A stretch of DNA of 64,000 nt from Siphonodentalium dalli. Taxonomy: Eukaryota; Mollusca; Scaphopoda; Gadilida; Siphonodentaliidae. Below, in pieces: positions 2,431-60,048 of the stretch; position 1 is the first letter of the stretch, and the number at the start of each line of letters is the position of its first letter. The position numbers and the translations under genes were made by a program. The notes beneath the pieces were generated by a model, which saw only the letters and a list, made by a program, of their open reading frames with translations, did not search any database and had not been told where the DNA came from. Where the stretch lies: contig CP136068.1 in assembly GCA_032622095.1 (NCBI GenBank), forward strand, positions 127,291,989 to 127,355,988, read 5' to 3'.

Positions 2431-3332
2431 GAATAATGCGATCATTCATGGAGTATGGGTGATCAAAATTAAATAATCGTAGGGGCTTGAATAAGAATCG
2501 TAGGGGGTGGATTTTTTCTCCAAAATTAACAATCGTACGGGTACGGTTATTCGGATCACTAGAGTACCTCCCACTTATGGGCACACCTCAGCCGCAGTCA
2601 TCCTGCAATCCACCATAAGGGCAAAAGAACAGAAAGACTCAAAACGAAAATTAACCGGCAACACGTCTAGTAGTAGCGGCGATCCGGGCGAGCCCCTAAA
2701 AAGAAACAGTTGTCACTAGCCACCTTTACGATGAAGAAAGAATTGGGCCCCGATGAAAAAAAAAGTATGACAGAGTACGATTTATCTCGTCATATTTTCA
2801 TGTGCCGTTCTCAACATTTTTTATTGTGACGTAGGTCCACACGGCAAGCTGCCAAACACGCACAGGTGATGGTATGGGGAGACACTCGCGCTGCAGCGGG
2901 ATCGCCGACATAAATCTAGTTCTTGTCGATTTACCACGGGGAGTAAGATTCGATTCGAGATTCGATTCGATGTGAAATCCGCGTGTCTGATTCGAATCGA
3001 GATTTGATTTGAACAAAATCGCCGATTCGTCGGACCCTACTAGTACCCTCAACAATACTTATACCCTGCACAAAGCGTATACAGAAGAAAAGCCAGCACC
3101 TTAAAGACTACGTTACGAGTCTACTACCACGACACCTCATCCGTAAAAATACAAAGTGCTATATTCCACCATCACATAACACAAACCAGTTCGCAAACTC
3201 ATTTTTTGTTCGAACCATATGTGACTGGAATCAGTTGGAGGAATCACCAATTGTTAAAACCGAGCCAATGGATTCCTTCAAGTGCGCACTGGAAATCATC
3301 TAGACCTCTCTCTCCCGCTGCATATATACACA
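2431..3332. other. Non-coding stretch with a short coding-like relic
   Basis: No gene is supported here. 2640-2830 has a lysine-rich coding look in two overlapping plus frames, one ending at 2719 and the other reading KKKQLSLATFTMKKE and then a stop. This could be a frameshifted transposase relic, but no family is recognised. 2945-3020 is rich in GATTCGA repeats. Confidence 0.3.
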
Positions 3333-3495
3333 TTATCGGTACAGTGAAGTGATATGGGCTTCAGTATCACGCCGAGTTGACGATGTCAGATCGCCGTATC
3401 AAACGAGCTGCCGCAGGCAGCGAGTTTGATGCAGCGATCTGACATCGTCAACGAGACGTTATACTGCAGCCCTTATCACTTCACTGTACCGATAA
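3333..3495. repeat. Imperfect palindrome, arms of about 75 bp
   Basis: The left arm starts TTATCGGTACAGTGAAGTGA and contains TTGACGATGTCAGATCG. The right arm contains CGATCTGACATCGTCAA and ends TCACTTCACTGTACCGATAA. The centre is near 3414. It would fold into one long hairpin, consistent with a fold-back element about 200 bp upstream of the LTR element. No target duplication was identified. Confidence 0.75.
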
Positions 3496-3696
3496 AGCGT
3501 TTATTATACGACACATTTTTGGTTCATCCCATGTCACAAAGGGCAAAACTACTTCGTTACACCATCCCATGTCATCACCCCGGCAAAAGTACTCCATTGA
3601 ACATTCCCAGTCATCACCCAAAACTCCCAATAAATAAATAGTTCCCAACTTCCGGTGACCTAATTTCACGGGATACTGATACGGAATTCAAACTTC

Positions 3697-3910
3697 TGTT
3701 GTAAAGTGGCGAATCGGGCAGGGTTAATCCCCAAGAAGGCAGCCAATGACGTCAGGACCACGTGACGGCAGAACGAAACCTTACTCCTAAATGGAACCCA
3801 GATTGATTTATATCTCTGAATAAGCTACGTTCATCTACGAGCGATATCGTGGATCGAAACTTACTGGAGGATTGATCGCCACGACACGTCAATACCAGTA
3901 AGTTTACTAT
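3697..3910 (+). repeat. 5' LTR
   Basis: Begins TGTTGTAAAGTGG and ends GTAAGTTTACTAT; the same ends occur in the 3' copy. It contains a CCAAT box, a CRE and an E-box (see separate entry) and a TTTATAT stretch near 3808 that could act as a TATA element. The 3' copy lacks two of those bases, so the promoter function of that stretch is only suggested. Confidence 0.85.
3743..3764 (+). promoter_or_regulatory. CCAAT box, CRE and E-box cluster in LTR
   Basis: CCAAT (3743-3747) overlaps a perfect palindromic CRE, TGACGTCA (3747-3754), followed by the E-box CACGTG (3759-3764). The same trio is present in the 3' LTR (11083-11104). Although other parts of the two LTRs differ, this stretch is identical. 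It fits the U3 enhancer of an LTR; binding by CREB/ATF, NF-Y or bHLH factors is inferred from the motifs only. Confidence 0.55.
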
Positions 3911-4223
3911 AATTGACGCCGTCGACAAATTCTTAAAATCGTGATTTTGAGAAGGATTCGTCGAAGGATTTCACGGACTCACAGCGAAATCTCTGTGATT
4001 CCAAATTCAAAGGATTGACTTTGGAAAAGTGAAGATTCTTCTTTATTCTTCTTGCGGAGAGGGATGACACTCTCCGATAAATGTTTGCACGCTACTACGA
4101 TTATATTGTGGTAGCTTGCGTATTGTGCTTAATTGTGAAATTAGGTTTTTGGGAAATAATTTTTCCCAAAATCCTTGTGAAAATTCGCGCAAGCTTCGCC
4201 AGGAGGAATTCTGGGAAAGGATT

Positions 4224-4407
4224 CCAAATTTGGTGAAGAAGGCGGAGCAAACACCCATATTTGGGAAAAGTGTTCAATATTTGGGAAAAGTGACGGGAAT
4301 TCAGCTCCCATATTAGGAGAAGAAGTCACGTGGTGTTCTATATTTGGAAAGCCGACCATACGGTCTGCCATATTTGGAACGACTCTTGAGTAGTGTGCCA
4401 TATTTGG
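4224..4407 (+). promoter_or_regulatory. Cluster of CArG (SRF-type) boxes in the leader
   Basis: Five exact matches to CC(A/T)6GG lie within 184 bp: CCAAATTTGG (4224), CCATATTTGG (4255, 4368, 4398) and CCATATTAGG (4308). Two near matches occur at about 4275 and 4338. CCATATTAGG is identical to the well-known c-fos serum response element core. The region is downstream of the LTR and upstream of the first long frame. Part of the similarity comes from short repeats ATATTTGGGAAAAGTG and GCCATATTTGGAA, so the cluster could also be simple sequence amplification. Confidence 0.45.
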
Positions 4408-5164
4408 AAAGCCAGAAAACTCGGAAATCAACATTCGTTAAAATTCAATAATTCTCAGAACTGATCCACCGAAATTAAGACAATTTATTACTTCTGGGCA
4501 GAAGAAACATTCGGGTTATTTCCACACACACGTGGTAGCGCATGGACTCTGTCTGGTACACGTGAGAGCAAACTAACGACGAGTCCACAAAACGGAATAT
4601 TTCTTACACCGATGAGTTCCCTCACATTCACATCGAGGGCTATAAGACTATAATTAAAAGTCACACCAGCAATACACATCAGGAAATATATATCCCACAT
4701 GTGGGCATGTATTGTGTTTCAACAATTAAAAGTTATTCTTCTCATTGGTATCTTCGGTTTGAGATATTACACGACCGCATTCTAGTTTTTCGGACATATC
4801 TTAAAGGGACAATACCAGTTTGTGAAAATTGTTTCGAAGAAATCCAATAAACAAAATCAACACAGCTTGTAACCCCTCTATCGAGGGAATATCATTCGGA
4901 CACTTCTCTTAAAGAGACATACTTGATACCAAGCACGGACTCTTCCGACTGTTATTGTTTATAGTCAGTATTCCGATTTTATCTTTTGGAGATAAATAAG
5001 GGAAGAGAGTTGGAAATAACATCTGGTCTAACATTAATGACACTTACCTTTCAGCAGAAGAGTTTTTGACAAAGGTTTGAGAAACATATCGAAAAAAAAC
5101 TGCCCCTTTCAAATTGGGGAAGATCTAACCAGTACATTGCAAAGATATTGAAAGTCTTGAAAAG

Positions 5165-8100
5165 ATGGCCTACCAGAACATTAACATGGTCCAACAACAG
5201 GAAATAGAGAATGGGGGAGCACGATCAAAACCGTATTATCCCATGCAAATAAGTACTCCATACCCCTCGCAACATAGTGAACCAGCAGCGGAAGGAATGA
5301 CACACCCCTATGGGGGAGGAAATCATTCTTATCCCAGCAGCACCGACACTCTGGGTCAATATCAGGAAAGGGGTCAAGATCATAATATTATTCCCCGATT
5401 AAGTTCTAGGGATATGTATCGAGAGGTATCATGTTTCTATGAGGATGAGTCCTCGGAATATGACAGTAATTCCTCAGACTATGACGGTATTGCCTCAGAT
5501 TTTGGTGAGGAACAGAAAGGGGGAGATGAGGTGGGAATAAAACCGAAAGATGATTATTCGGACTCGGATGAGCAACTGAAAATATCAAGGGCTTCCGTCA
5601 AAGAACACCTCAAAGATTTACTCCCCCAACCAACTATCAATGACCTCTTCAACAACAAAATACCTGGATTCGCACGTTCTAAAACAGTCATAAAACAGGA
5701 GACCATAACCCCGCAACACTATGGGGAAAATACCACCCGTCATAACACAAGACAGCCAAATAGACCCCCTGAACAAAAATATGGGGAACAGAGACCCCAT
5801 GATACAAAATATGGGGAACATAGACCCCCTGCTGCAATACCAGTCCAAAAGCAATGGAGGGATCATGTTGATTTTATTGTCGAGCCCACAGGGAATCAAC
5901 ATCGTTACCCGACAGACAGGGTACATGGATCCCAAAATGAGGCACGAGTACCGGCTAACCAACCTGATGTACTGCCACAGAGGCCAGCAATGCAAAATCA
6001 CCAACAGAGAGAGCGTGAAGATGGAGCTCGTGAAAAGGAAAATTATGAACATCGTCAAAGGAACTGTCGTTCTCGTTTCAGGGGGGAATTCATGCCTCCA
6101 AAGTTTGACGGATTGCCCAGTTCGAGTTGGCAAACATTCCGTACCAAGTTCGAGAACTATGCCGCCATGAGAGGATGGGATTATCAGCTGGTAGTGACTC
6201 CTTTGCGCTGGTGTCTGGAAGGTTTCGCTGGCGACCATTACGCTAGATTGGTACAGCAATCCCCTCATATAGAGGGACCGGAAATGTTACATCGGATGGA
6301 GGAAAGGTTCGGAACCTGTGACATCAAAATACCAAGATCTCTGAATTTTGATGGAGCACCAAAATCGAGTTGGGAAACCTTTCAAATAAAGTTTGAGATG
6401 TATGCCGCCATGAAGGAATGGGATGACCAAGAAATGGTGAATCAGTTGTGGTGGTGTTTGGAAGGTATGGCTAGCGATCATTACACCATACTAGTACAGC
6501 AATCCCCTCATATAGAGGGACCAGAAATGTTACTAAGGATGCGGATTAAGTTCGCACGTGACATCAAAATACCAAGATCTCTGAATTTTGATGGAGAACC
6601 AAAATCGAGTTGGGAAACCTTTCAAACCAAGTTTCAGATGTATGCCGCCACGAATGGATGGGATGACCAGCAAGTGGTGAATCAGTTGTGGTGGTGTTTG
6701 GAAAGTATTGCTAGCTATAGCTACACCATAATAGTACAGCAATCCCCTCATATAGAGGGACCGGAGCTGTTAAGACGGATGGAGAAAATATTCGGAATGC
6801 GCGAAATACCACAACGGTATACGACTGACTCAAGTTCAGAGATGCATGTGCGGAAATCCCCATCAAAGCCATCGCACCACATACCTGCTACCCACACTGA
6901 GATAAAATGCGTACCGGTACTGAAACAAACCGAAAATACGTATACAGTCACCTTACCACTGCCGAGCAGAGTCTCAAACCCCTGCAGGGGCGACCCAGAC
7001 CAAACGATAGAAACCGAGGTGCCTGAAATTCAAACAGTGCCTGAAATTCAAACAGGAAATCCCAATTATAAATTGGAGAAATGTATACAAGATCTAGAAG
7101 AACAACTCTCAACCTTGCGTACGGAAATAAAAAGTACCTGCATAAAAGAGCAAACATCAGAATTTCACATGAACAGAACAGTACAAGAAACAACTCAAGG
7201 TGACATAACCAATCCCCAAATGTTGGGGACATCCCCACTCACATGGGATCCTCTGGGGACATGTACGCAAATTGCGGCATCACCTGATGGAATGCCCAAG
7301 AACAGATATTACCGAGATGGGAACGCGGGGACAGGGCTACCCTCAATTGAGGGACATCCTACCACGGTGATATATTCAAATGATAAATCTGTACTAGACA
7401 TTTCAATTTCAGGAGAATGTCAGGAGGTACCCATGACTAAAAACGACTCAAATGTCAGCTTTATAGTTGGAGATAAAGGACTATCCTCCATTGAGGAACA
7501 TCCTTCAATAGTGATATGCGCACAAGAACCGACTGTTGACATGGCCCAAAATATAAACAATCCAAATAACAGTAGAGATTCAGGGCCACCCTCTATCAAG
7601 GGACATTCAGAAATAAAGACACGTGTCAAAGAACAGACTATATGTGATGTATCTCAAGAAATCGAAGAAAACATCCAACTATTAAACAACTGTATGCCCT
7701 CATCTAAGGGACATCATACCTTGACTGTATCCAAAGGTGAGCAAGGAAATGTTCATTTAATAAACAACTTCACCCCCTCATGCGAGGGAGATAACATAAT
7801 GACTGTGTCCGAAGACAAGGACCAAGAACATATTGTGCGAGAAAACTCTAAAATATACCGGTTGGCAAGAAAACAGGAAACATCTGAACCTACCTTAATT
7901 GAGGACCAGTGTTCGAGATATCGGTATAACAACACCGCTAACTCTAATCATAGTGATGCAGTCTTTACAGGTACTGGTAGCTATACTCAAACTGATGAAC
8001 CCTCTACACGGAGGGATAACCTAAATGAAGACATGGGCATGAGTGACAAAAAGAAGATTGAAACTAAATTAGAAGTTCAATATGTCATGCCAGATGAGTG

Positions 8101-9349
8101 CCAACCATGCCGACCAAGAACTACATGTATCAACATAGACCGAACACTGGACATGATGCAACAGATGACACTTTTAGGAAAACCACTAATGGCTGATGCC
8201 CATATTCACTGTATAACTGACAGAAAGGATACAACATCAATGGAAGAATTGTTACAAACCCATGACATTGAAAAAATCCAAAATAATACTCAGCTAGAAA
8301 ACATAACAAAATACCCAGAATCGTATATTTCAAAACATGCCAGTAATAGTAAGACCTTGGAATCCCTCATCATGAGGGGCGATGAATTGGGTCTTTGGAG
8401 GCCGGGAGAAGGAGATCCAAAGGATGTCATTATAAGCCTCTTAAATATGGATCCAACAACAACATCTGAACAACCAGCTGTTAAAGAGAACACCAGTGAC
8501 CTATCGCAGAAGATAGAAACGCATACTGGTACCAATAATACCAGTCGTGAATCCCTCATAGTGGGGGCCAAGCAGATAAGACTGCAAATTACTAAGGAAT
8601 GCGAACCACACGAGGCAAGAATACATATTCAAGAAAATGCCCAAATAACAACTGGCACAAATGACAGAGACTGCCATGGATACATGATGACAGCTGAAGG
8701 TATATCTGGAGAGACAGACAAAGAGAGTCAATATGAGCACCTAGCTGTTAATGATAGCACTAGTGACCTAATGCAGAATATGGATACCCATACTGGTACC
8801 GGTACCAATAATACCAGTCTGGAATCCCTCATAGTGAGGGTCAATCAGATACACGTAAGACCGCAAATGACTAAGGCATGCGAACCAAGCGAGGCAAGAC
8901 TAAATATTTATGAAACTGCCCAAAGAACTGCTTGTATAAATGATATAGACTGCCATGGAGATATTACGACAGATGATGGTATATCTGAACAGACAGACGG
9001 AGAGAGTCAATCTACTAGTAGTAGCACTGAAGGCCATACAAGTCTATTAACTTTTCCACCTAGTTACGGAAACTGGAGTGATATTGAACCTTCTGATTTG
9101 ATTAGCTGCATACCAGATACATGTGACACCCAGCCTGTTAACAAAGACTGGACGGAAACACAAATGGTCACATGCATATCAGAAACTTGGGACGACGACA
9201 GTAGAATCTATGAGCCACCACCAGTACCATTCCCATCAATGGTAACACCAGTTGTCGACGACTCACACAGTGATGATACAATGCAAGACATTGGTGAACT
9301 GCCTTGGTATCCGGGTGGACATTCTTCGTCAATGAAATCACATCTATAG
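5165..9349 (+). CDS. Gag/capsid-like protein with triplicated core module
   Basis: A 1394-aa frame starting at an ATG in good context (A at -3, G at +4). Residues 90-125 are acidic (ESSEYDSNSSDYDG); 255-305 are rich in R, Q and H. Residues about 308-545 hold three tandem copies of a module of about 80 aa with the pattern FDG..SSW.TF..KF..YAA..GWD and W(W)CLEG.A..HY..LVQQSPHIEGPE. This resembles the helical capsid core of Ty3-type retrotransposon Gag proteins (FDG, SW..F, G.A motifs). A short coiled coil follows (632-665). Residues 725-880 carry several PSIEGH-like repeats and 1105-1282 an 89-aa duplication. D1011-A-H1013-I-H1015 looks like the first metal motif of TatD nucleases. No CCHC knuckle, protease or polymerase was found. 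The predicted role is particle or RNP assembly for the element's transcript. The Gag assignment rests on motif resemblance read by eye. Confidence 0.7.
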   Translation: MAYQNINMVQQQEIENGGARSKPYYPMQISTPYPSQHSEPAAEGMTHPYGGGNHSYPSSTDTLGQYQERGQDHNIIPRLSSRDMYREVSCFYEDESSEYDSNSSDYDGIASDFGEEQKGGDEVGIKPKDDYSDSDEQLKISRASVKEHLKDLLPQPTINDLFNNKIPGFARSKTVIKQETITPQHYGENTTRHNTRQPNRPPEQKYGEQRPHDTKYGEHRPPAAIPVQKQWRDHVDFIVEPTGNQHRYPTDRVHGSQNEARVPANQPDVLPQRPAMQNHQQREREDGAREKENYEHRQRNCRSRFRGEFMPPKFDGLPSSSWQTFRTKFENYAAMRGWDYQLVVTPLRWCLEGFAGDHYARLVQQSPHIEGPEMLHRMEERFGTCDIKIPRSLNFDGAPKSSWETFQIKFEMYAAMKEWDDQEMVNQLWWCLEGMASDHYTILVQQSPHIEGPEMLLRMRIKFARDIKIPRSLNFDGEPKSSWETFQTKFQMYAATNGWDDQQVVNQLWWCLESIASYSYTIIVQQSPHIEGPELLRRMEKIFGMREIPQRYTTDSSSEMHVRKSPSKPSHHIPATHTEIKCVPVLKQTENTYTVTLPLPSRVSNPCRGDPDQTIETEVPEIQTVPEIQTGNPNYKLEKCIQDLEEQLSTLRTEIKSTCIKEQTSEFHMNRTVQETTQGDITNPQMLGTSPLTWDPLGTCTQIAASPDGMPKNRYYRDGNAGTGLPSIEGHPTTVIYSNDKSVLDISISGECQEVPMTKNDSNVSFIVGDKGLSSIEEHPSIVICAQEPTVDMAQNINNPNNSRDSGPPSIKGHSEIKTRVKEQTICDVSQEIEENIQLLNNCMPSSKGHHTLTVSKGEQGNVHLINNFTPSCEGDNIMTVSEDKDQEHIVRENSKIYRLARKQETSEPTLIEDQCSRYRYNNTANSNHSDAVFTGTGSYTQTDEPSTRRDNLNEDMGMSDKKKIETKLEVQYVMPDECQPCRPRTTCINIDRTLDMMQQMTLLGKPLMADAHIHCITDRKDTTSMEELLQTHDIEKIQNNTQLENITKYPESYISKHASNSKTLESLIMRGDELGLWRPGEGDPKDVIISLLNMDPTTTSEQPAVKENTSDLSQKIETHTGTNNTSRESLIVGAKQIRLQITKECEPHEARIHIQENAQITTGTNDRDCHGYMMTAEGISGETDKESQYEHLAVNDSTSDLMQNMDTHTGTGTNNTSLESLIVRVNQIHVRPQMTKACEPSEARLNIYETAQRTACINDIDCHGDITTDDGISEQTDGESQSTSSSTEGHTSLLTFPPSYGNWSDIEPSDLISCIPDTCDTQPVNKDWTETQMVTCISETWDDDSRIYEPPPVPFPSMVTPVVDDSHSDDTMQDIGELPWYPGGHSSSMKSHL
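6079..6798 (+). repeat. Triplicated 240-bp capsid-like coding module
   Basis: Copies start at about 6079, 6319 and 6559 with a period of exactly 240 bp between copies 2 and 3. Copies 2 and 3 share long identical stretches (for example GACATCAAAATACCAAGATC at 6320 and 6560), so their duplication is recent; copy 1 is more diverged. All three keep TGGTGT/CTGGAAG and the CCCCTCATATAGAGGGACC stem-loop near the end of the unit. Confidence 0.85.
8477..9010 (+). repeat. 89-aa tandem duplication near the C-terminus of the Gag-like frame
   Basis: Two in-frame units of 267 bp (8477-8743 and 8744-9010) share the pattern AV..STSDL.Q...THTGT, NNTS.ESLIV, TK.CEP.EAR, AQ.T, D.DCHG, GIS..TD.ESQ. No known domain was recognised. 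Confidence 0.8.
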
Positions 9350-9783
9350 AATCGGAAGAGCAGCATTCTATAGAATGGGTTGATCAGCATTGGGACCCAG
9401 AGTCAGTGACAAGATTTGAACAATGAACAGATTTGAACCCTCAGGGGTATATTGAAGATCAATTAATTCCCTCTACGAGGGAGCTATAACTCAACACATC
9501 AAACTTATTATTGGCCACAAAGAATTTAAGACAGTAACTGATAATTCCCACATAGCCTATAGATAGTGGGTGAGAAATCTGCTATAAGAAATGAGAATTC
9601 CACGAGCCCTTGGGTGATGCAAATATCCAGACTACCCCATTAAGGGGTCGAAGTAAAGAAAGACTAAGAAAGAAGAATATAGTGGGAGCTTGGAAGATGA
9701 ACACATACAATTAGCTGTATAGACTATAATAACTGGAAGTGACGTACGATTGATCTCCAAATGCGAATGATCAGCGACATACC

Positions 9784-10554
9784 ATGAACCCACTTAACAC
9801 TGATATGTGGGATTCCCTTTATAGGGTAAGGCATCTAAGATCCAAGATGAAGCAACTGCTCTTCCAGAAAGTCAGAAGACCGGAGACCTACCCGGACTCA
9901 GATGAGAAGTGGGACAATCTGACAAGAGTAGCAATTGGTTTGCACCCAACTCATGTGGCAAGAATGGCCCCGGAGCAGGAGGACCGAGCGCTAAAACAGA
10001 TGAAATATCATCTGCAATGCCCAGAAGTTACCGCTTTTGGCGAAGTGGGGTTGGACCGGACAATTCGTCCCGAGTTCTGGAGGAGACAAACATCGCTCTT
10101 CCAGAGACTTATTGAGCTAGTAACAACGGACAAACCCCTCGTGCTCCACTTTAGAGGGTCAAGGGAATCTGGGGACGCCGAAGATGTATTCAACCGGGGA
10201 TTGGTCATGGCAAAAGAAAATTTGTCACCCCTTCAACCAATACACCTACATTGTTTCACCGGCAGTAAGGCAATGGTGGAGAAATGGATACAAGCGTTTC
10301 CCAGATGCTATTTTGGGTTCACTGCGAAAGTGGGAGATTTCACCAACACCCAAAAAGATGCCCTACAGGCCGTACCGGACGACAGACTATTGACTGAGAC
10401 AGATGCCCCATACATAGGAAAAAACCTGGGAGTAAGATATATACCCACGATGGTGGGAGATGTCGCTGTATTAATGGCAGAAGTGAGAGGATCTACAGTC
10501 GACCAGATCCTGAAGGTCACCGTCAAGAACGCCCGTGACCTATATCGACTGTGA
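9784..10554 (+). CDS. TatD-family metal-dependent nuclease (TATDN2-like), N-terminal motif missing
   Basis: A 256-aa frame matching the C-terminal four-fifths of TatD-type Mg-dependent DNases (amidohydrolase-fold TIM barrel). Visible motifs are GLHPTH (52-57), AFGEVGLD (84-91, with the expected metal ligand E87), LVLHFRG (119-125, H122), HLHCFTGS (154-161, H156), GFTAKVGDF (178-186), LLTETDAPY (202-210, catalytic D207), and the GVRYIP and NARDLY tail typical of the family. The usual beta-1 motif D-x-H-x-H is absent because the frame begins after it. An in-frame TGA lies about 30 bp before the ATG. A D-A-H-I-H motif occurs inside the upstream frame (8195-8209), so an active enzyme may require splicing or another route that joins the two. 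In this element it may process nucleic acid during replication or integration; that is inference. It is not an ordinary host TATDN gene, because it has no introns and sits between LTRs. Confidence 0.82.
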   Translation: MNPLNTDMWDSLYRVRHLRSKMKQLLFQKVRRPETYPDSDEKWDNLTRVAIGLHPTHVARMAPEQEDRALKQMKYHLQCPEVTAFGEVGLDRTIRPEFWRRQTSLFQRLIELVTTDKPLVLHFRGSRESGDAEDVFNRGLVMAKENLSPLQPIHLHCFTGSKAMVEKWIQAFPRCYFGFTAKVGDFTNTQKDALQAVPDDRLLTETDAPYIGKNLGVRYIPTMVGDVAVLMAEVRGSTVDQILKVTVKNARDLYRL

Positions 10555-11036
10555 GATCTCTCTAACAATATCCAGAGACGACGGATGCGGAAGGCCTCGG
10601 TCCCATCATTCTGTCCCTCTCATGAAGGGAAGGAGTAGCCCTTGCAGACCTAAGGCAGGATCGACACACCATCGCCAGGCTGGATGGAAAACAAGGGGAT
10701 GGGAGTTCCCCTCCAATTATAGAGAGAGACAGCGTCATGGGGACCGAGAAAATTACATGAGTCCGACCCCTGTTTGGGGAATGAATAACGGATAGTCAAA
10801 CACCCCGGTACGGAACAAGACAACAGAATAAAGACCCCTAAGGGGAAAGAATAACACATAGTCAAAAGAGAGAACCGAAGAAACCACACAATCATCGTGG
10901 GGAAAGGAGGAGGGATGGAATACCCCACACTACTGACACCAAGGCCTTGAGGGATAAAAGAACCCCTGATGGGGGGACAAGAAGACAGGAATCACACCAT
11001 ACAAGGCACCCTCCAAAAATGGAAAATTGGGAAGAG
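10555..11036 (+). other. Element 3' leader with stem-loops and polypurine-like tract
   Basis: Non-coding in any long frame. It holds four C-rich/G-rich stem-loops (10614, 10767, 10835, 10963) and a tract with two TT interruptions, GGAAAATTGGGAAGAG (11021-11036), ending exactly at the 3' LTR. This is the position expected for the plus-strand primer tract of an LTR element. Confidence 0.5.
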
Positions 11037-11249
11037 TGTTGTAAAGTGGCGAATCGGGCAGGGTTAATCCCCAAGAAGGCAGCCAATGACGTCAGGACCA
11101 CGTGACGGCAGACTGAAACCTTACTCTTGAACAAGAAACCAGATTGATTTATCTCTGAAGAATCGACGTTCATCTACGAGCGAAATCGTGGATGTAAACT
11201 TGCTGGAGGATCTATCGCCACGACAAGTCAATACCAGTAAGTTTACTAT
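11037..11249 (+). repeat. 3' LTR
   Basis: Same ends as the 5' LTR. The first 75 bases are identical; differences concentrate around 11112-11165. The flank ACTTC is followed by AAAGGATACTGATACGGAATTCA, whose last 20 bases also precede the 5' LTR, so the insertion target was probably a short tandem repeat. Confidence 0.85.
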
Positions 11250-11487
11250 ACTTCAAAGGATACTGATACGGAATTCATAGAATACCGATACGGCTCACGA
11301 CCAGACAAGCGTTTTCCGACTGCTCGGAATTTATCGCCAAACAATAGTGGTATTTGTAAGGGATTAGTGGTAGTCATATAATAAATGCCAGTATTGGATT
11401 CTGCAGCATAAAGATACAGATACAGAAAGCTAAACCAGATGTTAGTTTACACGAAATTAGGTGACGTAAAATTATCAAAACAAGCAC

Positions 11488-11694
11488 CTGCTGAACTTGC
11501 TCGCATTTATTTCTGAGAGCTAGATATTTCTTCAAGGTTTCTGTTTCCTGGGCAAACTTTTCGAGCTGTGCTTGAAGGTTTTCCGTGTTAATTTCAACTT
11601 CTAATTCAGTTTTAACGTCCGCTTCAGCCATTTCCGCTAAAGAAACAATAGGTGTATTCGATTGGTACTCGAGAGGAAATACTTGAGATTCCAA
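11488..11694 (-). CDS. First coding exon of an unrecognised coiled-coil protein
   Basis: 69 codons from an ATG at 11694, with an upstream in-frame TAA, to a good donor (CAG/gtgcttgt) at 11488. The peptide starts MESQVFPLEYQSNTPI and continues as an acidic heptad-like helix containing INTENLQAQLEKFAQETETL and ending NKCEQVQQ. The amphipathic pattern suggests a coiled coil. The next exon would lie at lower coordinates, beyond the LTR element or outside the window; none was found. The protein family is not recognised. The alternative is a chance open frame, but composition and the clean donor argue for a real exon. Confidence 0.5.
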
Positions 11695-12892
11695 GTTATT
11701 TTGCCGATAGGAAACTCGTCCATTTTACTAAAGGGGCAAGCCCGGTTTGATTTCGTTTCAATATCCACTGCACATTTATTAAAATTAATATTATACATCA
11801 TTGAAAAGCTTATTAAAAATTAATCAAATATCAGAAATATTCATAGTAGCTGGATACATACATGTACACATGTGGCTGCACTGTGTGCAAGTTTTAAAAA
11901 TGTATAATGATTTTTATTTCCAGTCTATTTATAATATTGCAATGACGAACATATCATAAAAAAGTTAATGAAATAATAATAAGAACAAATAAATAGAAAT
12001 AGGCAAAAAAGGAGATATTTACGAATGATCGTTAATATTCTTTGTGAATTATAATGAGTAAGACAAGCATAAACGCTCTTTATTGTTTTTTGTGTGTTAA
12101 TGATTCGATATTTAGTCTTATATTGGCAGCTGTTTTTATTTGCTTTATAATATATAGCCATATTTGTAGCCAAATTAAGGTGACTCTGTCTGCATGACTA
12201 GTCGAAATTTTTGCCATCAAGACATCCAATGAATGTGCTCATAGATAGGCTACAGTCTGCTAGCTATAATAGCCAACAGTCTGCTAGCTATAATAGTGAA
12301 TTTGTTCTGGTATCGGTAGGTGTAACCATATAAATAACGCACATACACGCAGGCATTAATAAAAGGGTATAATACGATGTTTGGGTAGGGGGTGGCCTGC
12401 AACGGAGTGCAATATACCGGTATATAGAATCCCATGTGGTATAGAGAGATGGGCAACACTCCGCTGAGGTATAGGCTTGTAATGTGATGGGAAGAAAGAA
12501 TCGACGTGGCTGGAATTTTCTGGTAATATTTAGTTGATTACCATGACATTCTTTCAGTTGACATGTTAAAGATGCTGCAATATGTGTTCACTCATCAGTT
12601 TGAACCCATGCATCCTTATAGTTAAACTTGTGGTTATTACGCCCTCTTGTATGTATACTGCGAACATATTTTTGCCTGCCAATGGAGCCATTGTGAAACA
12701 TAATGTGACTAAATACGTACTGTGGTATTTTAATACTTGTCTCTATGCTCCCATCTGTCGAGATGTATATTCACTTATCGCTTTGCGGTTATTTCGACTG
12801 GCGATTCGACATACTTTATTGAACTATTCATGGCCCGGGATGTTAGCCATGATAATTTTTCATGCTAAGATTAGGGAATTCGCTCATTAGCC
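11695..12892. other. Intergenic AT-rich sequence
   Basis: No gene recognised. A 24-bp direct duplication around AGTCTGCTAGCTATAATAG lies at 12254-12298. Open frames here have no recognisable composition. Confidence 0.4.
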
Positions 12893-36001: not shown

Positions 36002-36020
36002 AATAAAAAGTTTATTATAC

Positions 36021-37444
36021 CTTCCTGAGGTTCTTGCCGAATCCTCGTATTGCGAACATGAGCCCCTCTCTTGGATCCATCTGTGGTTTGAACCGAGGAT
36101 CGTCTTTATGCCTGTTACTGACCGAGGGCTTCGCTGGTTTTGCCGTCGTCGTTGCAAAAAATGGTGGAGGTGGAGGGGCAGCAGGAGCAGCATTTTGTGG
36201 TGATGATTGCGTGAGTGTGAATTTTGACTCCATGTTCTTAATAACTTCCATTTCGCGATTCTGTTGTTCAGTTAACGCCTGCATGCACTGCTGAATTTGT
36301 TCCATAAGTTGTTGTTGTATTCGTAAATTCTCCTGCATTTGATCGGGGCCGACGTTATGTTGCTGTAAGAGTTTCTGATTTTCCAATAGTTGTTGCTGCC
36401 ATCTTGCCATTTGTTGCTGAATTTCGATTTGCGATGACATCGGAGATGGTTCACGATTTACGGGTGATGAATAAACATTTGTAAGCGAGTCTCGCTTCGA
36501 TTTTAACAATTTATCGTCCAATCTACTATTATCACCATAGTCCTCTACGAAAGATTTACGCTTCTGTAAAACATTCTGCAACTCTTTGCCAACCATTTTG
36601 TTTTTCTCCTCGAATGATAAATTAATCGTCGATGATGTCACATAAGATGGTGAGCTAGGACTAAAGTCAAGAGTTCTTGATGTACCTCGATTAATTGGAT
36701 GAGCAATTTGTGAAATTGATTTCTCCTCGAGAACAGTTTCTGTCTCACCTTCAGAACGAGGCGAAAAGTTAAGTTCGGAACACCTGTTATTAACATCGTC
36801 TTTACTAGGCGTTGTACTCTCGCTAGGTCCTTCGCTAACAAGAGATAATAATGAAACGTTCCCACTGTATCTGTCATTGGAAGCACTCGTGTTAAATGAT
36901 GTCTGTGATCTGTCCACAAGAACTGGTTTTTTAGCAGGTTTTGGGACAGTATAGTTAACATTCCGTAAATCAGAAAGAGTTATAACAAACTCCTCTTTCT
37001 CTTTTGGAGGCTCGTTTATTTTTGATTGTTTATTTTCAAAGCGTGATTGGTTCATTCTTCTTCCGAAGTCTGAATCGCGCTCATTAAATGTCACACGGTT
37101 CGTTGCTATGGGAAGGGTATACACAATCTCTTCTATTGTTTCTGTCCATTCCTCTTCCTCCTCGTCATTCACATTGTCTTCTGCTCGAGAAGGCTTATCA
37201 GATATATCATCATCGTCATAGAAATCATCCTTGAATTTTATTGGCTTAGTCTTATCTCTGTTGTCAAACTTGTCAGTAATTTCCGAAACTTCAAAATCAA
37301 CAGATGTTCTGCCGGTTTCTTCTGCTGTACTCCTTGGAGTCTCCAGATGTTGGTCATTCACTGAATCATCATCATTCGGTAAATTAAGTTTCGACATTTT
37401 GTTAACGAATGTAGCCATCTCAGATTCGTAATGGTCGGGCACTT
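36021..37444 (-). CDS. COBL-like gene, large exon with coiled coil and WH2 motif
   Basis: The acceptor is ttccttttcag/AAGTGCC at 37444 (entered in phase 1) and the donor AAG/gtataata at 36021 (phase 0). The exon encodes 474 codons plus two bases. In order: a charged acidic segment (SDKPSRAEDNVNDEEEEEW), serine-rich linkers, a Q-rich coiled coil (QQQMARWQQQLLENQKLLQQ and MEQIQQCMQALTEQQNRE), a short proline run (APAAPPPPPFF) and a C-terminal WH2-type motif (EGLMFAIRGFGKNLRKV). WH2 motifs of Cordon-bleu proteins bind actin monomers and drive filament nucleation; a single C-terminal WH2 recalls COBLL1 or invertebrate COBL. The alternative reading has a stop one codon past the donor, ending the protein at ...LRKV. 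Family assignment rests on this motif plus the basic proline-rich exon upstream. Confidence 0.8.
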
Positions 37445-37589
37445 CTGAAAAGGAAATAATTAGAGGTGACTATGAATCATGTTATCAAAGTCCAGATACC
37501 CAAACAAAAATATACATGGCTTGTTTGAAGTATTGTCCAAAGTGTGCGTGTCAGACCAGTATTAAAAATATCTATATTTGCAGTTACCC

Positions 37590-59297: not shown

Positions 59298-59330
59298 TCA
59301 GGCTTCACAGTAGATAAACAAACATCTCAC

Positions 59331-60000
59331 CTGTACCCGATGGCTTGGGTGGAGCGGGTGCTTTCTTTTTCTTCCCTGTAGCAGCACCTCTCCCTCGATT
59401 AGAATCCTCCAGTGAGCTAGATCTCTTTGGTACTGTCTTAGAATCGACAGCTTTTTTATGCGGCAGTGTTTGGCTGTACACCTCAATATCAATATTAGCA
59501 CCGTGGGCGTGGTTTACACCACTATCACAACCAGTCAAATTATCAACACCCTCCAGCGAGTCTATGTCCATATTTGTTTTGAAAGCACCACCCGTGTAAC
59601 CTTCCGGAGACTCCGCCCCACTAATGGTTATTTCGTGATATCCACTAGAATCGGAACTATTCCGGGAATGCAGCTTATGTGCTGTAGGATCTATAGTCAG
59701 TTTTCCTGGAATTGATTCTACTTCCATCCGCCGTTCAATTTTAACAGGACTACTTTCTGGAAATTGTTCGACACGTTTTTGCGGAGGCAGAGGCGCAGGT
59801 CGCTTCTTGCCGCCAGATTTTTGGGGAACATTGTTCTGTTGCACAGGCATTGCACTATTTTTAGAATCTGTGACGTCGATCATTGTCATTGGTCGATGTT
59901 GCGCCTTATTAGGTTGATTTGTGTGATGTTCACTCGTACTAGCGGTACGACGAGGCGTTTCCTCTGCTATCCTTGTTGGTACATTCTCTTTAGCAATATA
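59331..60000 (-). CDS. COBL-like gene, 670-bp exon with KRAP-like basic proline-rich motifs
   Basis: The acceptor is ctttaattacag/TATATTGC at 60000 (phase 0) and the donor ACAG/gtgagatg at 59331 (phase 1). The product begins YIAKENVPTRIAEETPRR, contains GGKKRPAPLPPQKR (near the Cordon-bleu KKRAP motifs that bind the SH3 domain of syndapin/PACSIN), a serine-rich middle (HSRNSSDSSGYHEITISG) and ends with a second basic proline motif (GKKKKAPAPPKPSGTG). These two motifs are the main support for the COBL assignment besides the WH2 motif. COBL proteins act at the cell cortex, where syndapin and actin nucleation meet; that role is inferred from the family. Confidence 0.82.
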
Positions 60001-60048
60001 CTGTAATTAAAGCAATATTTATAGATGAATTCAGGGTTCTAGCCTTCT

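What the first reader, a model, noticed from the sequence alone, without database searches (positions are those of the whole stretch)
3697..11249. LTR element whose only products are a Gag-like protein and a TatD nuclease
Seen: near-identical 214-bp direct repeats, a 5-bp flanking duplication ACTTC, a 1394-aa frame with capsid-like modules, a 256-aa frame with TatD motifs, and no pol motifs. Known: LTR retrotransposons normally carry pol; terminal-repeat elements with gag only have been described, chiefly in plants; TatD proteins are metal-dependent nucleases. Inference: a non-autonomous Gag plus nuclease element that uses another element's reverse transcriptase, with the nuclease substituting for or adding to a step in replication. 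I do not know of a named family with this content.
Basis: partly seen in the sequence, partly recalled or inferred. Interest (0 to 1): 0.88.

Follow-up and report, generated by a model that had tools for sequence, protein, structure and literature searches.

The report
Retrotransposon family encoding RNA-repair and nuclease enzymes
The element in the window is a short, dependent offshoot of a larger jumping element that, besides the usual copying enzymes, carries a third gene joining an RNA-repair enzyme to a nuclease, a pairing we did not find described for any such element.

Summary
The LTR element is real and multi-copy, but it is not an independent "Gag + TatD" system. The genome (2.2 Gb, unnamed, probably mollusc) holds eight 7.35-7.58 kb copies including the window's, and longer copies with related LTRs (two of 14.4-14.5 kb). 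Long copies encode Gag, a Ty3-type Pol with a C-terminal PHD finger, and a separate ORF3 in the env position. ORF3 fuses a Tpt1/KptA RNA 2'-phosphotransferase, a zinc-finger region and a complete TatD nuclease. The window copy lost pol, Tpt1 and the TatD N-terminus with its metal-binding HxH; its 1394-aa frame evolves neutrally (dN/dS about 1). In long copies TatD is under strong purifying selection (0.10-0.17). One read copy of each of three further families shows a PHD-ended Pol followed by Tpt1-zinc finger-TatD; 33 of 73 Tpt1 sites have a listed TatD downstream on the same strand, 0 in the control orientations. A -1 frameshift heptamer joins gag and pol; a splice-acceptor-like site precedes ORF3. 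Most likely ORF3 is a spliced-message enzyme that mends or trims RNA used in reverse transcription (inferred, not shown). Closest known: bdelloid rotifer LTR elements with DEDDy-exonuclease ORF3s.

The parts
3693..3696 (.). 4-bp target-site duplication CTTC, left
3697..3911 (+). 5' LTR (TGTTGTAAAG...TTTACTATA), of a different subtype from the 3' LTR
3914..3926 (+). putative primer-binding site TGACGCCGTCGAC two bases after the LTR; tRNA not identified
   Evidence: sequence; the same bases follow the LTR in 13 of 15 copies (C2 counted with a shifted end); role inferred
3697..4350 (+). 5' LTR plus leader shared with long copies (92.7% to C5)
5165..9349 (+). 1394-aa frame: Gag-derived N-terminal 550 aa, about 840 aa without a match outside short copies; lacks the second half of the capsid region and the zinc knuckle; neutral
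6075..6794 (+). three tandem copies of the N-terminal capsid-like module (one per Gag in long copies)
9784..10554 (+). 256-aa frame; homologous to TatD from 9880 on, without the HxH metal site; truncated relic of ORF3
9880..11250 (+). TatD C-terminal part, 3' UTR and 3' LTR shared with long copies (about 94% to C5)
11029..11036 (+). short polypurine stretch GGGAAGAG just before the 3' LTR, in 13 of 15 copies
   Evidence: role inferred
11037..11250 (+). 3' LTR
11251..11254 (.). 4-bp target-site duplication CTTC, right

Best explanation
The window holds a non-autonomous short LTR retrotransposon moved in trans by a larger Ty3/gypsy-type partner family that shares its LTRs, leader and 3' end. The partner encodes Gag, Gag-Pol (by -1 frameshifting at U UUA AAC) with an integrase-linked PHD finger, and, from a spliced message, an ORF3 protein joining a Tpt1 RNA 2'-phosphotransferase to a TatD nuclease through a zinc finger and a conserved region. 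Shown by sequence: copies, domains, selection on TatD, recurrence in four families. Inferred: frameshifting, splicing, trans-mobilisation. Mechanism of ORF3 (inferred, about 0.35): it works on RNA needed for reverse transcription. Tpt1 takes off 2'-phosphates that RNA cleavage and re-ligation can leave; TatD trims 3' ends or the RNA strand of hybrids. In the short form the TatD stretch persists as 3' sequence, not as an enzyme. The confidence given is for the anatomy and the partner relation.
For: Copies, LTR pairs and 4-bp TSDs: (9 of the 15 LTR pairs measured have no substitutions). Long-copy domains (C5): (RVT_1 4.8e-26, RNase H 2.5e-31, integrase, PHD 2.5e-9; PTS_2-RNA 2.5e-41; TatD 7.3e-37 over the whole profile); closest solved RT is Ty3, closest solved Tpt1 7yw3. 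Shared blocks of window and long copies. Selection in ORF3 (C5 vs C4): TatD dN/dS 0.10, zinc-finger region 0.14, Tpt1 0.35, linkers 0.50-1.12; TatD vs linkers p 0.0003. Recurrence: one copy each of families A, B and D with a Pol end (integrase, PHD) followed by Tpt1-zf-TatD; 33 of 73 Tpt1 sites with a listed TatD downstream, 0 in control. Slippery heptamer in phase in C5, C9a and C4. Acceptor-like site between pol and ORF3. TatD barrel model with 256 of 582 residues at pLDDT 90 or more and TatD top structural matches.
Against: No transcript, protein or activity data. Selection on Tpt1 alone is not significant within the family (p 0.48 vs linkers; 4 of 9 changes synonymous, p 0.098, or 12 of 33 against C2, p 0.050); dN/dS of Tpt1 is 0.46 and 0.52 in the C5-C2 and C5-C3 comparisons. 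C5 vs C9a and C9b differ too little to test (ORF3 3 synonymous to 9 and to 7 nonsynonymous, 0.87 and 0.68). In families B and D the third Arg of the tetrad is Lys. Copy C5 has no 4-bp duplication. LTRs, RT and gag of families A, B and D were not read. The origin of about 840 residues of the window's long frame is unexplained, so 'simple deletion derivative' is too plain. 48 of 71 TatD frames of 700 aa or more have no listed Tpt1.
Confidence: 0.85

Rival explanations
1. One reading: a self-contained Gag plus nuclease element in which its own TatD replaces or adds a replication step.
For: Both frames are uninterrupted in the window and in C6a; TatD profile E 2.9e-36.
Against: The TatD frame lacks HxH, and the match starts at profile position 46 or later in the 7 of 8 short copies that one search lists; the 1394-aa frame is neutral and uninterrupted in only 3 of 8 short copies; a long pol-bearing copy with full TatD was read.
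Confidence: 0.04
2. The 1394-aa protein works as a modified Gag that parasitises or blocks the partner's particles (three capsid modules, no zinc knuckle).
For: Module triplication with 33 invariant columns against the long-copy Gag; the frame survives in 3 of 8 young copies.
Against: dN/dS 0.63 to 1.58 between window and the seven other short copies, with too few changes to exclude weak selection; the capsid model was poor and decides nothing (pLDDT 43.5).
Confidence: 0.12
3. ORF3 is a counter-defence protein: Tpt1 puts ADP-ribose on RNA or DNA ends, or undoes host RNA cleavage, and TatD destroys host nucleic acids or small-RNA intermediates.
For: [quoted passage not shown] Families B and D carry Lys at the third tetrad position; Ala at two tetrad arginines slows step 2 in RslTpt1 (PMC6333775 passages), so these might stop at the ADP-ribosylated intermediate.
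Against: The tetrad is complete in families A and C. What Lys does at that position was not tested, and which residue is which is my reading of the motif.
Confidence: 0.25
4. ORF3 is mainly a nucleic-acid-binding or targeting protein and its enzyme folds are inactive leftovers.
For: A zinc-finger-like stretch and basic repeats in ORF3; linkers evolve fast.
Against: TatD dN/dS 0.10 to 0.17 in three comparisons; the metal-site motifs (recalled) are present in C5 and in the B and D domains, D read to shortly before its end.
Confidence: 0.12

Closest known systems
Bdelloid rotifer LTR retrotransposons Juno and Vesta with enzymatic ORF3 (DEDDy exonuclease, GDSL esterase), PMC5408684 (passages; section 3.6)
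   Same: Retrovirus-like LTR elements with a separate, captured enzyme gene in the env position; one type resembles 3'-5' exonucleases for RNA and ssDNA ends; the paper says such ORF3s are expressed from spliced messages
   Different: Different folds (DEDDy/GDSL vs Tpt1 + TatD in one protein); 'TatD' occurs 0 times in that text; 'PHD' occurs once in a passage not shown to me
TelKA2n, non-autonomous rotifer family (PMC5408684 section 3.6)
   Different: Keeps an env-like ORF3; the window form keeps only a truncated TatD and has a new long frame
TR-GAG elements of plants (search listing only; details recalled)
   Same: LTRs, gag-type frame, no pol
   Different: Window frame lacks the zinc knuckle and is neutral; animal host (inferred); TatD remnant
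Cellular Tpt1/TRPT1 and TATDN2-like proteins
   Same: Domain folds; proteins with the same zinc finger-NSPA-TatD layout are on record: P0121 (Saccostrea), P0122 (unnamed source) and P0123 (labelled a Sedimenticola MAG, perhaps host contamination)
   Different: Here Tpt1 and TatD are fused and lie behind a PHD-ended Pol in LTR elements; the three recorded proteins show no Tpt1 match
Ty3 (Metaviridae)
   Same: PR-RT-RH-IN order; best solved RT match is Ty3
   Different: HhH in Gag, PHD finger, ORF3, larger size, 4-bp duplication (5 bp for Ty3, recalled)

Membership tests
Ty3/gypsy (Metaviridae) LTR retrotransposons, long copies | Pol order protease-RT-RNase H-integrase with Ty3-like RT | tested here: met
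   one copy (C5):
Ty3/gypsy (Metaviridae) LTR retrotransposons, long copies | Flanking LTRs, short TSD, polypurine tract | tested here: met
   TSD absent in 3 of 14 copies (C3, C5, C6b)
Ty3/gypsy (Metaviridae) LTR retrotransposons, long copies | RT phylogeny within Ty3/gypsy | not tested
   no tree was built
Non-autonomous LTR element (window) | LTRs shared with a pol-bearing partner; no own pol | tested here: met
   (C5 LTR 86.5% to the window's 5' LTR, 95% to its 3' LTR)
TR-GAG | Functional gag frame as only gene (recalled definition) | tested here: not met
   neutral frame without zinc knuckle
Tpt1/KptA RNA 2'-phosphotransferase (ORF3) | Profile match and Arg-His-Arg-Arg tetrad | tested here: met
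   motifs in A and C; B and D have Lys at the third place
Tpt1/KptA RNA 2'-phosphotransferase (ORF3) | Removes RNA 2'-phosphate with NAD+ | not testable with these tools
   needs assay
TatD nuclease, long-copy ORF3 | Whole TatD profile, TIM barrel, HxH-E-H-H-D site | tested here: met
   (motif list recalled)
TatD nuclease, window ORF | HxH metal site | tested here: not met
Env-bearing retrovirus-like elements | ORF3 is a membrane fusion protein | tested here: not met
   Pfam finds only Tpt1 and TatD in ORF3 at E up to 0.1; transmembrane segments were not predicted

The most novel reading that the evidence does not exclude
A lineage of animal Ty3-type retrotransposons has, in place of env, an RNA-repair enzyme (Tpt1) fused to a TatD nuclease, and uses it to undo RNA damage, made by the host or by RNA re-ligation, that would stop reverse transcription. 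As far as our searches show it would be the first retroelement-encoded RNA 2'-phosphotransferase and would point to a source of 2'-phosphorylated RNA in animals, where the job of Tpt1 is unclear.
Probability: 0.35. Interest if true: 0.9.

Novelty: new variant of a known kind. Interest (0 to 1): 0.74.

Why it matters
Tpt1 occurs widely, yet outside fungi its substrate is a puzzle (PMC6333775, passages: metazoan tRNA ligation leaves no junction 2'-phosphate, and the mouse gene is dispensable). A selfish element that has kept this enzyme, fused to a nuclease and seen in four families, gives a concrete context in which to look for the natural substrate. It also widens the known range of ORF3 captures in LTR retrotransposons, pairs an integrase with a PHD finger (possible chromatin targeting, inferred), and warns that some 'TATDN2-like' gene models in molluscs may be retroelement genes.

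Tried and rejected
Rejected: single-copy locus; chance TatD match; HxH supplied by the 1394-aa frame (ADAHIHC at 8192): a lone short motif in another frame, about 1.6 kb upstream of the TatD frame, not further tested. Led nowhere: viral-contig scan gave 0 relatives from 22 pattern matches; genome-contig scan kept the best 80 of 468 confirmed loci, whose titles are bacterial, and these were not followed; capsid model poor; solved-structure search with Gag gave nothing and with the window frame only two weak ribosomal-protein matches; Tpt1-region search in proteins of about 647-2058 aa: none of 305 candidates. Not reached: a pol-TatD co-location count, the primer tRNA, and the source of the 840 residues (not completed). 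The scored TatD list covers 150 of 529 candidates and the Tpt1 list 150 of 154, so counts are lower bounds. Rows left out: C2 from the TSD count; the 29-kb LTR pair and five single LTR hits (their loci L030-L036 were used only). The domain split crashed after printing its main results and was redone.
Full report
WHAT IS IN THE WINDOW. The element lies at 3697-11250 between 4-bp duplications CTTC (3693-3696, 11251-11254). The LTRs are 214-215 bp and begin TGTTGTAAAG and end TTTACTATA. They differ at 17 of 212 aligned bases. That is odd for a copy which, after its first 500 bp, is 99.2-100% identical per 500-bp step to C6a and C7b; the first 923 bp match a stretch at C4:203219906-203220828 at 99.35%. 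A conversion or recombination at the 5' end is the simplest reading, so the LTR difference should not be used to date the copy.

THE FAMILY. The LTR finds 37 places in the 2.2-Gb genome. Thirty of them make the 15 two-LTR copies measured; a 29-kb pair and five single hits were not measured. In 9 of 15 pairs there is no substitution between the LTRs, so the family was recently active. Eight copies, the window's included, are short (7354-7577 bp) with the window's content; C8a and C8b share their flanks, so they are one insertion duplicated. The other seven are 9.6-17.6 kb; C5 and C9a are 14.5 and 14.4 kb. The C5 copy has frames of 790, 1684 and 1346 aa.

THE LONG COPIES. Pfam on C5: ORF1 has a helix-hairpin-helix (3.3e-9), a PNMA capsid match (0.0011, below its cut-off) and a zinc knuckle (0.0021, below cut-off). 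ORF2 has protease, RVT_1, RNase H, integrase and a C-terminal PHD finger (2.5e-9). ORF3 has PTS_2-RNA (Tpt1/KptA; residues 256-430; 2.5e-41) and TatD_DNase (1075-1345; 7.3e-37, positions 1-253 of 253). Solved-structure matches agree: Ty3 RT for ORF2, with BPTF and PHF2 PHD fingers, and tRNA 2'-phosphotransferase 7yw3 (7.9e-30) and YcfH TatD (3.5e-14) for ORF3. The modelled TatD part is a confident barrel whose best PDB matches are TatD enzymes; the part before it was modelled poorly.

GENE EXPRESSION SIGNALS. ORF1 and ORF2 overlap with a T TTA AAC heptamer in the phase for -1 frameshifting, found in C5, C9a and C4 and not in the other copies by the filter used. Between the pol stop and ORF3 lies an acceptor-like site, TTTCTCCTCTATTTGCAG|G in C5, C9a and C9b, with close variants in C4 and C2. 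Family D has TTTTTCCTCTGGTTGCAG|G; B has an AG directly before its ATG (11 of 15 pyrimidines), but a better-scoring site lies inside its pol; A has only a weaker candidate (10 of 15). Tracts of 12 or more pyrimidines in 15 before YAG occur 5 times in 14,882 bases of the C5 piece. Frameshifting and splicing are inferences from these sites.

SHORT VERSUS LONG. Window and C5 share the 5' LTR and leader, a 189-bp gag piece, the capsid module (three tandem copies in the window, one in C5) and everything from 9880 to the 3' LTR. Gone are pol, Tpt1, the zinc finger and the first part of TatD with DSHFHLD; GEVGLD, VLHFRG, HLHCFTG and ETDAPY remain. One search lists 7 of the 8 short copies (not C1b), each starting at TatD profile position 46 or later. 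The last 840 or so residues of the 1394-aa frame matched only other short copies among the sequences held; their origin is open. The 1394-aa frame is uninterrupted in 3 of 8 short copies (window, C6a, C7b). The TatD-side frame is 266 aa from stop to stop in the window and C6a, 216-222 aa in four copies, and shorter in C1b (154) and C7b (178).

SELECTION. Window against C6a, C7b, C1b, C8a, C8b, C7a and C1a: dN/dS of the 1394-aa frame 0.63, 1.58, 1.12, 0.99, 1.29, 1.15, 0.93; against C8a about 10 of 50 changes are synonymous, with 21% synonymous sites (p = 1). The TatD part of the window gives 0.15-0.17 against C5, C9a, C9b and C4 (the first three nearly identical to each other), 0.59 against C2, and 0.47-0.51 between the two short subtypes, so the constraint may sit in the long lineage. 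Long copies C5 vs C4: ORF1 0.29, ORF2 0.20, ORF3 0.34; C5 vs C2: 0.49, 0.37, 0.40, C2 carrying stops; C5 vs C9a and C9b differ too little (ORF3 0.87 and 0.68 on 12 and 10 changes). Within ORF3, C5 vs C4: TatD 0.10, zinc-finger region 0.14, Tpt1 0.35, linkers 0.50-1.12; vs C2: TatD 0.16, Tpt1 0.46, zinc-finger region missing there; vs C3, which has stops: TatD 0.17, zinc-finger region 0.23, Tpt1 0.52. In C5 vs C4 TatD differs from the linkers (p 0.0003), the zinc-finger region too (p 0.007), Tpt1 does not (p 0.48). These tests use related copies and are approximate.

RECURRENCE. The genome has 83 Tpt1 matches among 150 scored of 154 candidates, all 83 over the Pfam cut-off, and 150 TatD matches scored out of 529 candidates, all over the cut-off. 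Merged into 73 sites, 33 Tpt1 sites have a listed TatD within 6 kb downstream on the same strand and none upstream or on the other strand; of 46 full-length Tpt1 sites 28 have one. Of 71 TatD frames of 700 aa or more, 23 have Tpt1 and 48 do not. Small stretches of one copy each of three further families show the same order: pol end with integrase and PHD finger, then ORF3 with Tpt1, zinc finger, NS.A..HW-like region and TatD (A; B and D). The TatD of A was read only in part there (one search gives the whole profile by coordinates), that of D to near its end; their LTRs, RT and gag were not read. Integrase-PHD identity is 59% A-B and 64% C-D, 44-50% otherwise; Tpt1 is highest for A-B (44%) and flat elsewhere (34-39%), TatD highest for C-D (46.0%) and nearly as high for A-D (45.9%, short stretch). 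This fits common descent but does not prove one capture, and a conserved stretch (QY.LA...W) lies before Tpt1 in A and after it in C and D (by eye).

OUTSIDE THIS GENOME. A search of 5.8 billion proteins with the window TatD lists mollusc proteins near the top (Saccostrea, Mercenaria, Magallana and others; 120 of 6239 hits shown). ORF3 as query found 3 proteins, all with zinc finger-NSPA-TatD but without a Tpt1 match: one from Saccostrea, one unnamed, one labelled a Sedimenticola MAG. Mercenaria P0041 joins RNase H of a reverse transcriptase to TatD. No Tpt1-bearing protein of this kind was found. The host being a mollusc is an inference from these relatives.

MECHANISM. Shown: domains, motifs, selection on TatD, recurrence. 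Inferred: the short form is packaged and copied by the long partner through shared ends; ORF3 comes from a spliced message; it acts on RNA in or around reverse transcription. Tpt1 removes an RNA 2'-phosphate with NAD+, its Arg-His-Arg-Arg tetrad being essential (PMC6333775, passages); families A and C keep it, B and D have Lys at the third place (which residue is which is my reading of the motif). TATDN2 is described as degrading the RNA strand of R-loops (PMC12754012, passages). An enzyme pair that clears 2'-phosphates and trims RNA ends or hybrid RNA would help a template or primer through reverse transcription; a counter-defence use is the main rival.

NOVELTY. Paper searches for TatD or TATDN2 with retrotransposon terms, Tpt1 with transposon terms, phosphotransferase with LTR retrotransposon and PHD with gypsy listed no paper whose title or abstract start describes this; I read listings, passages of four papers (PMC6338049, PMC5408684, PMC6333775, PMC12754012) and one section. 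Subscription papers and repeat databases were not searched. Captured enzymatic ORF3s are known in rotifers (PMC5408684), so the kind is known and the variant looks new.

Noticed in passing
window 3324-3504: An 89-nt inverted repeat (85% complementary, 3 nt between arms) lies just upstream of the element; looks like a small foldback element.
   Followed up: no
window 11377-60006, minus strand: Open stretches that look like exons of one or more host genes on the minus strand (e.g. 36018-37469, 59308-60006, 11377-11724); the LTR element sits near one of them.
   Followed up: no
G000:C8:44312119-44319872 and 44443225-44450991: Two short copies with identical 12-bp flanks on both sides, so probably a segmental duplication and not two insertions; both have an altered start of the 3' LTR.
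   Followed up: partly
G000:C6:168573725-168849731: Five Tpt1 sites within about 280 kb, mostly partial or with stops.
   Followed up: no
G000:C6:103057155, C3:80495244, C7:145794264, C1:56547136, C1:9271635, C6:103415839, C5:96621661: Seven TatD matches in single open frames of about 300 aa with the best scores in the genome, on five chromosomes; origin unknown.
   Followed up: no
G000:C5:240197101-240197769: A TatD match inside a 2082-aa open frame.
   Followed up: no
L129-L132, L134, L137 (families B and D): Third catalytic Arg of Tpt1 replaced by Lys in two families; might change the enzyme into an RNA ADP-ribosyltransferase.
   Followed up: partly
G000:C5:114006623 and 114016430: Two Tpt1 sites 9.8 kb apart on the same strand; in the first the frame runs into a coiled-coil-like stretch (L122).
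   Followed up: no
P0041, P0089 (Mercenaria records): Gene models named TATDN2, one fused to RT RNase H: possible misannotation of retroelements as host genes.
   Followed up: partly
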